Part shown: one piece after another, positions 23,732 through 26,085 of the stretch | How the letters are laid out: the number at the start of each line of letters is the position of its first letter | Position numbering within the stretch: the first letter of the stretch is position 1 | DNA from: an uncultured Paracoccaceae bacterium | GTDB lineage: Bacteria > Pseudomonadota > Alphaproteobacteria > Rhodobacterales > Rhodobacteraceae | Direction: 5' to 3' | Assembly (NCBI GenBank): GCA_947499635.1 | Contig: CANMPD010000002.1 | Location: 124,001 to 188,000 of the forward strand | DNA: 64,000 nucleotides | Translations under genes and position numbers: made by a program | Notes under the pieces: model-generated | The model's database searches: none | What the model saw: only the letters and a program-made list of their open reading frames with translations | What the model was told of the DNA's origin: nothing

Positions 23732-24613
23732 TTACCAACTTTCCCGCAACTCCTGTTGGTACTTGTCGACCACAAGAAACACGCCTGATCCTGCGACCAT
23801 CACCATGCCAAAATATGTCATGAGTGACGGAAACTCTCCAAAAACGACGATTGCCACCAAAACCATCCACACAAATTGTAAATTTAACAAAGGCATGACC
23901 GTATAAGTGGGCAAAACACGCACTGCCACCACCAGGATCCAACGTGCAAAAAATAAGAACCCGCTATAAATCAATACCCACATTATGTCTGTGCCAGTCA
24001 TAGGTTGCCAAACAAAAGGCAAATATACAGCCATACAAAGACCAAGCGCCAGATTAGGATAGAATACCTGCAGGAGTGATTTATCTTCAAAACGCGCAAT
24101 ATAACGGGAAACCGTCACCGAAAACGTTCCGATCAGCGCGGCGCCAAAGGCAACAATCGCGCCAAGATAGTTCTCTCCCCCCCATGCGGGAAGTAGGGCA
24201 TAAACGCCAAACACTCCGCAACACAGTGCAATCCATGCATTCCAGCCAACCTTTTCCCCTAAGATAGGCCCTGCCATTAATGCGGCAAAGATTGGCATGA
24301 GCGCGATAAAAATAAAGACATCTGCAAAAGGCAGCAGCCGGAACGCATAAAAAAAACCAACCGTTGCGACAACCATCGACACGGATCTCACCACCATCGA
24401 CCAGGGGCAGCAGGTCGATATCTCCAAACGCTCTCCCCGTACGTGTTTGGTAAATATACTAAGAGCAGCAACAATAAGTCCTGAAAAGGCATAAAGCTGA
24501 GCAGCCTCAAAGCTTTCTGCAAAAAACTTCGTTATCCCATCTGCACCAGAGGTTAATCCACCATAGATCACAACCAGCAGAGCCGCCCCCAGTGCATTCC
24601 ATTGCATTTGCAT
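23732..24613 (-). CDS. DMT superfamily (EamA) transporter
   Basis: 293 aa, about 10 hydrophobic segments in two EamA-like halves (ALLVVIYGGLTSGADGITKFFAESFEAAQLYAFSGLIVAALSIF...RSVSMVVATVGFFYAFRLLPFADVFIFIALMPIFAALMAGPILGEKV). Confidence 0.85.
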   Translation of the reverse strand: MQMQWNALGAALLVVIYGGLTSGADGITKFFAESFEAAQLYAFSGLIVAALSIFTKHVRGERLEISTCCPWSMVVRSVSMVVATVGFFYAFRLLPFADVFIFIALMPIFAALMAGPILGEKVGWNAWIALCCGVFGVYALLPAWGGENYLGAIVAFGAALIGTFSVTVSRYIARFEDKSLLQVFYPNLALGLCMAVYLPFVWQPMTGTDIMWVLIYSGFLFFARWILVVAVRVLPTYTVMPLLNLQFVWMVLVAIVVFGEFPSLMTYFGMVMVAGSGVFLVVDKYQQELRESW

Positions 24614-24614
24614 A

Positions 24615-25802
24615 TTACACGTTCACTGGAGTTAAAGTGCGTCGCGCCTCGAGAAGGCTTGCGACTTGGTCAGATTGCTGTGCGCCTTGAAACCGCGAAC
24701 CTGTAACTGTGTCAGACAAACGCGAGAACGCCGTGAAAAACGTTTCAAATTCTGGGATACTTGCTTCGGCGCCTGCCAAAATAGATTGCTCCGATTGCGT
24801 TAATCCACCCTGCACATGTGATCTCAGAGCAGTCCAGCTGATACCAAGAGCGCGCTGCCCTCTCGTTGAGTTCGAATTTTCTACCATAGAATATGTCGCC
24901 ATAGAGACACCCCGCAGTGCACTGGTTCCACGCCCGTGAATAAATGACTTCACGCCTGTATAATCTGTATCAAATAGTTTAGCTCCTTCAACCCTAGAGA
25001 GAAACCAATTCAATACAAAATATTCATGATAGTTATCCATTGCCCCCACCATAATAGGTCGCGTTGAGAGCTCGAACTGGCTATGGGAGGTTTTAAGGAA
25101 TGTTCGCCACAGGTCAGGCACGGCTGATTGTGTAAACTCCAACGCGAGGCATACTTCTGCTAATAAATCAGGATCCTGATCTAAATACGCAATACCGCCC
25201 GCGAAATATAAGCTCTGTACCGTTTCCGGTGACACCTGCGGGTCACAGCGACCGTAATCCGACAAATAAAAGAGAATATGCGTCAATTCATAAGCTGTTC
25301 TGCGATTTGGAATTGCAAAGTGATGGCTACGTTCGGTAAATTGACGCAACCGTTCATCTAGGCGCTCACCACTGTCCACACCTGCTTTCACTTCAACGCC
25401 GCGACGCGCCAACAGTCGGCGAACTTCAGCACGTTGTAGATCAGATAGCTCGGCATCAACCAGTTGTGACTGCGCAACCCATTCAGCCAATTCCAACCCA
25501 CGTGACCCCGGCAATCCAAGGTCTTCCAAATCAATACATATAGATAAAATAAACCTGTAATACTGTCGGAAAAAATTCATGTATCGCATACTTCCTTCGT
25601 AAAAGGGGCGATAACACTCCAAATCAATTAAATCGCGCTTTAATCCACCATCATTTAAAACTGCTAAAAATTCAGCATTTTCTTTTAACCACATAACATC
25701 TTGCCGATTGTGGCGAGAATTAAAAAATACATTTATCAAATTTAAATAAGGGTCTTTTTTTAATTTATCTCTACGATCTGAAAGTAAATAAATATTTTTC
25801 AA
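24615..25802 (-). CDS. Uncharacterised 395-aa protein; candidate peptide-modifying or maturation enzyme
   Basis: No family recognised with certainty. Possible DUF6902/DUF6895-like helical family from memory only, via NRRTAYELTHILFYLSDYGR and DNYHEYFVLNWFLSR. Stop codon overlaps the DMT start region (TAATATG). Confidence 0.75.
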   Translation of the reverse strand: MKNIYLLSDRRDKLKKDPYLNLINVFFNSRHNRQDVMWLKENAEFLAVLNDGGLKRDLIDLECYRPFYEGSMRYMNFFRQYYRFILSICIDLEDLGLPGSRGLELAEWVAQSQLVDAELSDLQRAEVRRLLARRGVEVKAGVDSGERLDERLRQFTERSHHFAIPNRRTAYELTHILFYLSDYGRCDPQVSPETVQSLYFAGGIAYLDQDPDLLAEVCLALEFTQSAVPDLWRTFLKTSHSQFELSTRPIMVGAMDNYHEYFVLNWFLSRVEGAKLFDTDYTGVKSFIHGRGTSALRGVSMATYSMVENSNSTRGQRALGISWTALRSHVQGGLTQSEQSILAGAEASIPEFETFFTAFSRLSDTVTGSRFQGAQQSDQVASLLEARRTLTPVNV

Positions 25803-25826
25803 TTTTACACCCTTAATTTAATGCAC

Positions 25827-25855
25827 CTTAACCCGGAAAAATATCCCGGGTTAAG
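25827..25855 (-). promoter_or_regulatory. Intergenic hairpin between repeat peptide gene and 395-aa gene (putative attenuator / processing hairpin)
   Basis: 10-bp perfect arms CTTAACCCGG (25827-25836) / CCGGGTTAAG (25846-25855), 9-nt loop; no U-tract after it on the minus strand. Confidence 0.65.
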
Positions 25856-25866
25856 AAGATACGTTT

Positions 25867-26085
25867 TTAGATGTCAAATACTGTTGAAGACACCATAGAT
25901 GTACCGGCACCTTCAAAGATGCTATTTTGTGCAACATTTAGGCTCGATGTATCGGAAATACCCGCCTCGTATGATTTATAATCCAAAACTGTAGAGCTCA
26001 CCAATCCTGTGGCTTCGCCTTCGAATACCGAATTAATGTCAGAAAAGACCCAGTCAACTTTCTTTAAACTAGACATGTATTTCAT
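25867..26085 (-). CDS. Small repeat peptide (69-72 aa), candidate precursor peptide; preferred start ATG 26076
   Basis: MKYMSSLKKVDWVFSDI|NSVFEGEATGLVSSTVLD|YKSYEAGISDTSSLNVAQ|NSIFEGAGTSMVSSTVFD|I. AAGGA lies directly before the first ATG but ~8 nt before ATG 26076. Confidence 0.75.
   Translation of the reverse strand: MKYMSSLKKVDWVFSDINSVFEGEATGLVSSTVLDYKSYEAGISDTSSLNVAQNSIFEGAGTSMVSSTVFDI
25873..26034 (-). repeat. Three tandem 54-bp (18-aa) units inside the small peptide gene
   Basis: Units: 25981-26034 NSVFEGEATGLVSSTVLD, 25927-25980 YKSYEAGISDTSSLNVAQ (degenerate), 25873-25926 NSIFEGAGTSMVSSTVFD. Shared columns [FY]-E-[GA]-x2-[TS]-x3-S-x2-V. Confidence 0.75.

What the first reader, a model, noticed from the sequence alone, without database searches (positions are those of the whole stretch)
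23732..26085. Candidate undescribed peptide-maturation operon: repeat peptide, uncharacterised 395-aa protein, DMT transporter
Seen: three minus-strand genes in order, a ~70-aa S/T-rich repeat peptide (26085-25867), a 395-aa protein with no confident family (25802-24615) and a DMT/EamA transporter (24613-23732), set between housekeeping genes erpA and xthA. Established: precursor, modifying enzyme and exporter in this order is a common RiPP operon layout. Inference: this is a RiPP-like or peptide-scaffold pathway. No known RiPP enzyme signature was recognised (no radical-SAM CxxxCxxC, no YcaO, LanM/LanC, ATP-grasp or MNIO pattern), so the class would be new if real.
Basis: partly seen in the sequence, partly recalled or inferred. 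Interest (0 to 1): 0.9.

Follow-up and report, generated by a model that had tools for sequence, protein, structure and literature searches.

The report
Repeat peptide with linked DUF6902 enzyme
A short repeat-containing peptide, an uncharacterised enzyme and a small exporter sit together in about a quarter of marine roseobacter-type genera and are inherited as a set; the enzyme is a distant relative of a recently reported peptide epimerase, so the set most likely makes a small modified peptide whose sequence differs from genus to genus.

Summary
One DUF6895 protein was reported in 2026 as a lasso-peptide epimerase (known to me only from a citation). DUF6902 occurs in 85 of 298 Rhodobacteraceae genomes. 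In 80 of 82 loci I read, a repeat-peptide ORF lies directly upstream, almost always between xthA and erpA. A profile of the peptide hits 77 genomes, all DUF6902-positive, and none of 213 negatives. Close relatives of the EamA transporter occur only in DUF6902-positive genomes (33 of 43 against 0 of 97). Repeats share an F-x-S-x-x core that is uniform within a precursor (93% identical) but differs between genera (35 versions), despite many synonymous codon differences, so the amino acids are under selection. The two DUF6902 proteins without a peptide have lost residues of a Tyr-His-Asp-Glu-His set shared with DUF6895. DUF6895 genes elsewhere also follow small leader-core peptides. Best reading: an undescribed RiPP-like system in which DUF6902 modifies, probably epimerises, tandem cores and EamA exports the product. 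The chemistry is inferred.

The parts
   Evidence: leader MSSLKK matches M[TSN]A[LQ]xK of relatives; AAGG about 9 nt upstream of the ATG
25981..26034 (-). repeat copy 1, NSVFEGEATGLVSSTVLD (core VSSTV)
   Evidence: Sequence; fits the family motif GxxTx[LM][FV]xSxx
25873..25926 (-). repeat copy 2, NSIFEGAGTSMVSSTVFD (core VSSTV), 12 of 18 residues identical to copy 1
   Evidence: Sequence
25826..25856 (-). 12-13-bp hairpin without a U-run between peptide and enzyme; possible processing or attenuation element
   Evidence: -22.5 kcal/mol, z -3.3; no terminator-like site; a stem of 8 bp or more in 35 of 69 relatives
24615..25802 (-). DUF6902 enzyme, 395 aa, proposed peptide epimerase; conserved Y171, H175, D212, E216, H259
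   Evidence: AlphaFold pLDDT 86, pTM 0.86, all-alpha
23732..24613 (-). EamA/DMT-family transporter, proposed exporter
   Evidence: Pfam EamA E 1e-12; close homologues in 33 of 43 DUF6902+ and 0 of 97 DUF6902- genomes

Best explanation
This is a RiPP-like operon. A short precursor with an N-terminal leader (M-S/T-A/S-L/Q-x-K) carries tandem copies of a unit made of a recognition part (G-x-x-T/V-x-M/L-F) followed by a short, genus-specific core (x-S-x-x; VSSTV in the window). The DUF6902 protein, a helical (probably alpha/alpha-toroid) enzyme with a Tyr-His-Asp-Glu-His set shared with DUF6895, binds the precursor and modifies each core in turn, most likely by inverting an alpha-carbon to give a D-residue. 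A protease encoded elsewhere releases the small product and the EamA transporter exports it. Shown: gene set, exclusive co-occurrence, core homogenisation, joint decay of enzyme and peptide, homology to DUF6895. Inferred: epimerisation, which residue, proteolysis, direction of transport, biological role (the uniform, genus-specific cores suggest a signal or identity peptide, or an antagonist).
For: Enzyme is DUF6902 with a DUF6895 match above the curated cut-off; DUF6902 vs DUF6895 profiles align over 163 columns, E 1.3e-5, probability 81%; a DUF6895 enzyme is reported as a lasso-peptide epimerase (Shi et al. 2026, cited in PMC13352647). Peptide upstream in 80 of 82 loci. Precursor profile hits 77 of 298 genomes, all within the 85 DUF6902+. 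EamA homologue exclusive to DUF6902+ genomes. Core identity 93-97% within a precursor vs 32-37% between loci (67% at the Ser); 35 cores; identical residues at the four core positions use the same codon in only 43-57% of pairs; 3520 synonymous vs 689 nonsynonymous codon differences in the core, 2897 vs 3713 in the flank. Y, H, D, E, H conserved across DUF6902 and DUF6895, on corresponding helices in both models. L098 (RRSEH) and L101 (VQLRT) lack both the residues and the peptide. DUF6895 genes outside Rhodobacteraceae also follow leader-core peptides. The DUF6895 model resembles alpha/alpha-toroid enzymes including a glucuronate dehydratase, whose chemistry also starts with proton abstraction (mechanism from my own knowledge).
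Against: No biochemistry. The epimerase assignment rests on distant homology (13-19% identity) to a family known to me only through a cited title; that paper was not readable here. DUF6902 itself gives no significant solved-structure match. The window's own precursor is a minimal two-copy form missed by the family profile. No protease is linked. EamA is not found immediately downstream in 19 of 79 loci, so it is not essential or is replaceable; DMT proteins usually carry very small substrates.
Confidence: 0.6

Rival explanations
1. Same precursor-enzyme-exporter system, but DUF6902 does a different modification (dehydration, crosslink, cleavage or ligation at the Ser/Thr/Cys-rich core) and not epimerisation.
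For: Cores are rich in Ser, Thr, Cys and Gly; alpha/alpha toroids host varied chemistry (terpene cyclases, GH154/GH105, dehydratases); DUF6902 is only distantly related to DUF6895.
Against: The only reported activity in the superfamily that I found is epimerisation, and the same five residues are conserved.
Confidence: 0.25
2. Not a RiPP: the repeat polypeptide is an intracellular or surface scaffold, and DUF6902 is a non-catalytic partner or chaperone that binds each repeat.
For: No known RiPP enzyme signature, no linked protease; helical-repeat-like weak Foldseek hits.
Against: Invariant His/Asp/Glu/His/Tyr lost only where the peptide is lost, a close transporter inherited with the set, and homology to a reported epimerase.
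Confidence: 0.1
3. Chance neighbours between erpA and xthA.
For: In the window alone the repeat is short (two copies, 12 of 18 identical).
Against: Peptide-enzyme co-occurrence Fisher p about 1e-62, transporter-enzyme p about 1e-23 (shared ancestry makes both overstated, but there is no exception among the negative genomes).
Confidence: 0.02

Closest known systems
DUF6895 peptide epimerase (Shi et al., ACS Catal. 2026, lasso peptide modification; seen only as a citation in PMC13352647)
   Same: Pfam DUF6895 overlaps residues 74-227 of the window protein; the same Y-H-D-E-H set on corresponding predicted helices; DUF6895 genes found here also follow a small precursor-like ORF
   Different: 13-19% identity to the DUF6895 proteins at hand; precursors are tandem multi-core instead of a lasso precursor; no lasso cyclase or leader peptidase in the inspected operons
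MslH, MS-271 lasso peptide epimerase
   Same: Proposed reaction: epimerisation of a precursor residue
   Different: MslH has a calcineurin-like fold (PMC10406935); DUF6902 is all-alpha and gives no match to it
Radical-SAM (PoyD, YydG) and alpha/beta-hydrolase (BotH, LinHL) RiPP epimerases
   Same: Would install D-residues in ribosomal peptides (classes listed in PMC10406935)
   Different: No radical-SAM or hydrolase domain in the window protein
Multi-core RiPP precursors (cyanobactins and dikaritins; from my own knowledge)
   Same: One precursor carries several cores, each with its own recognition sequence
   Different: No cyanobactin or dikaritin enzymes; core homogenised within and variable between genera, with an unrelated maturase

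Membership tests
Pfam DUF6902 (PF21843) | profile match above curated cut-off over most of the model | tested here: met
   374 bits vs cut-off 27, profile positions 10-350 of 351
Pfam DUF6895 (PF21836) | profile match above curated cut-off | tested here: met
   56.8 bits vs 23.8, but only positions 76-229 of 289; hhalign E 1.3e-5
DUF6895 peptide epimerase | conserved residue set of the superfamily present | tested here: met
   Y171 H175 D212 E216 H259; whether these are the catalytic residues is not known here
DUF6895 peptide epimerase | epimerase activity on a precursor peptide | not testable with these tools
   needs chiral analysis or D2O exchange
RiPP | gene-encoded precursor next to and co-inherited with a modifying enzyme | tested here: met
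   80 of 82 loci; 77 of 77 precursor-positive genomes are DUF6902+; that the enzyme modifies the peptide is inferred
RiPP | post-translational modification and proteolytic release of the core | not testable with these tools
   no mass-spectrometric data; no protease linked
Lasso peptide | lasso cyclase and leader peptidase in the operon | tested here: not met
   window neighbourhood holds erpA, dgt, argS, xthA and similar; none seen near DUF6895 loci L125-L127, L153 either
Radical-SAM, YcaO, LanM/LanB RiPP classes | matching Pfam/NCBIfam enzyme domain in the operon | tested here: not met
   only DUF6902/DUF6895 and EamA found
EamA/DMT transporter | Pfam EamA match | tested here: met
   PF00892 E 9.9e-13, 49 bits vs 28.2

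The most novel reading that the evidence does not exclude
A new RiPP class, widespread in Rhodobacteraceae, in which a stand-alone alpha/alpha-toroid epimerase modifies tandem 4-5-residue cores that are uniform within a strain but switch rapidly between relatives, acting as a strain- or species-identity peptide (a bacterial analogue of multi-copy pheromone precursors) released through a DMT exporter.
Probability: 0.3. Interest if true: 0.92.

Novelty: new variant of a known kind. Interest (0 to 1): 0.78.

Why it matters
If right, roughly a quarter of the genera of one of the main marine bacterial families carry an undescribed ribosomal peptide system (no paper in the searched library names DUF6902), with precursors that Pfam and NCBIfam do not recognise. 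It would widen a newly reported epimerase family to short, multi-copy, iteratively modified cores, give a compact two-gene tool for placing D-residues, and open a testable question: why are the cores identical within a strain yet different between near relatives, as in pheromones and self-recognition peptides?

Tried and rejected
Chance adjacency: rejected by co-occurrence. 'No family': rejected. Recent DNA duplication as the sole cause of repeat uniformity: the core keeps its amino acids despite many synonymous codon differences, whereas flanks do not; codon identity is still above random usage, so some recent copying also occurs. Lasso peptide: no cyclase or peptidase seen. Known precursor family: Pfam and NCBIfam give nothing significant. 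Solved-structure relatives: none by sequence and none for the DUF6902 model by fold in PDB or viral libraries; the DUF6895 model gives only toroid-type hits at E 1.6e-3 and worse, TM about 0.5. Literature: nothing on DUF6902 or DUF6749 and only the citation for DUF6895; further searches unhelpful. The genome-contig scan with the protein gave one locus only. Spatial clustering of the five residues could not be measured, since model coordinates are not provided. Promoter scan: no excess over shuffles.

Full report
What is there. The peptide most likely starts at 26076 (69 aa). The 395-aa ORF (TTG, 25802) and the EamA transporter are one base apart; a strong hairpin without a U-tract (25826-25856, z -3.3) lies between peptide and enzyme, a layout that could yield more precursor than enzyme (inference).

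Families. The 395-aa protein is Pfam DUF6902 (E 8e-112) with an overlapping DUF6895 match (E 3e-15). Profiles of the two families align (E 1.3e-5, probability 81%). No paper held names DUF6902. [quoted passage not shown] 2026). I could not read that paper, so its details are not used.

Distribution and context. DUF6902 is in 85 of 298 Rhodobacteraceae genomes, nearly all from different genera. I read 82 loci (79 by script, plus L101, L152 and the window). Of the 79, 73 have xthA within 4.5 kb and 64 have both xthA and erpA (several contigs end early), so this is one conserved chromosomal slot. A repeat-peptide ORF lies directly upstream in 80 of 82. A profile of 20 precursors hits 77 genomes, every one DUF6902-positive, none of 213 negatives. 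The profile misses very divergent precursors such as the window's own, so 'none' means none recognisable. Close EamA homologues (E <= 1e-45) are in 33 of 43 DUF6902-positive and 0 of 97 negative genomes, next to the enzyme; the transporter belongs to the set but is not found directly downstream in 19 of 79 loci.

The peptide. Typical unit: G-[DE]-x-[TV]-x-[ML]-F-x-S-x-x, period 20-21 aa, up to about 20 copies, median 7. The four residues after the Phe are the same in 93-97% of repeat pairs within a precursor but in 32-37% between loci (Ser 67%). 35 different core pentapeptides were counted (FSSGS, FTSWS, FCSAS, FITSC, FTTSL and so on; one of the 35 is a mis-called unit). Even at 70-80% enzyme identity only 20% of locus pairs share a core. 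Within precursors the core shows 3520 synonymous against 689 nonsynonymous codon differences, the flank 2897 against 3713: the core amino acids are under selection to be uniform. About half of the precursors (39 of 75) end exactly at a core.

The enzyme. Across 81 DUF6902 proteins and DUF6895 proteins of other families, Tyr171, His175, Asp212, Glu216 and His259 are shared (apart from L098, one conservative Tyr-to-Phe change in L099). AlphaFold models (pLDDT 86 and 84) put them on corresponding helices in both families. Two His plus two acids could bind a metal or serve as a two-base pair; this is inference. The DUF6895 model resembles alpha/alpha toroids (type II terpene cyclases, GH154, a glucuronate dehydratase) with E 1.6e-3 and worse and TM about 0.5; the DUF6902 model finds nothing significant.

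A natural experiment. Only two DUF6902 loci lack the peptide, and they are the only two whose enzyme lost several of these residues: L098 (Y171R, H175R, D212S) and L101 (all five). Fisher p is 3e-4 for peptide against His175.

Outside the family. DUF6895 genes in G401 (Rhizobium sp. CF122 by protein match), G477, G638 and G683 each follow one or two small ORFs with a similar leader (LxxxGI[IV][ND] followed by a second helix-like stretch) and a Trp-containing tail (GPWFVL, GPWYIY, DWTFVS, AWAFIV), again sometimes duplicated. No lasso cyclase is nearby. So small precursor plus DUF6895/6902 enzyme looks like the ground plan of the superfamily, though this rests on four loci. G243 has a truncated DUF6895 and an apparently broken precursor.

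Conclusion. A precursor-enzyme-exporter system is well supported (my estimate 0.88). Epimerisation is the most likely reaction (about 0.6) because of the DUF6895 link. The role is unknown; genus-specific, internally uniform cores fit a signal or identity peptide, or an antagonist.

Noticed in passing
L125:7251-7850, L126:8907-9338, L127:7425-7910, L131 (reverse complement) 1001-1237: Small leader-core ORFs directly upstream of DUF6895 genes in other proteobacterial families and another class; tails contain Trp, leaders are alike, no lasso genes nearby.
   Followed up: partly
window 24615-25802: Database gene model (P0004, 359 aa) starts 36 residues late at an internal ATG; the TTG start keeps an invariant Arg30 and two predicted N-terminal helices.
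   Followed up: yes
L128 (G243) about 4650-5588: Truncated DUF6895 and apparently frame-shifted precursor, a probable decaying pair.
   Followed up: partly
L101 (G039) 4402-5499: Divergent DUF6902 at the same chromosomal slot that lost all five conserved residues and the peptide; it may have a new role or be decaying.
   Followed up: partly
L035 upstream ORF (G068); L062, L096: Largest precursor seen, 420 aa with about 20 near-identical TSGSAP units; L062 and L096 have assembly gaps (runs of N) inside or beside the repeats, so copy numbers there are lower bounds.
   Followed up: no
window 26086-26391: AT-rich 300-bp spacer between xthA and the divergent peptide gene, the likely promoter region; the consensus scan shows no excess over shuffles.
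   Followed up: partly
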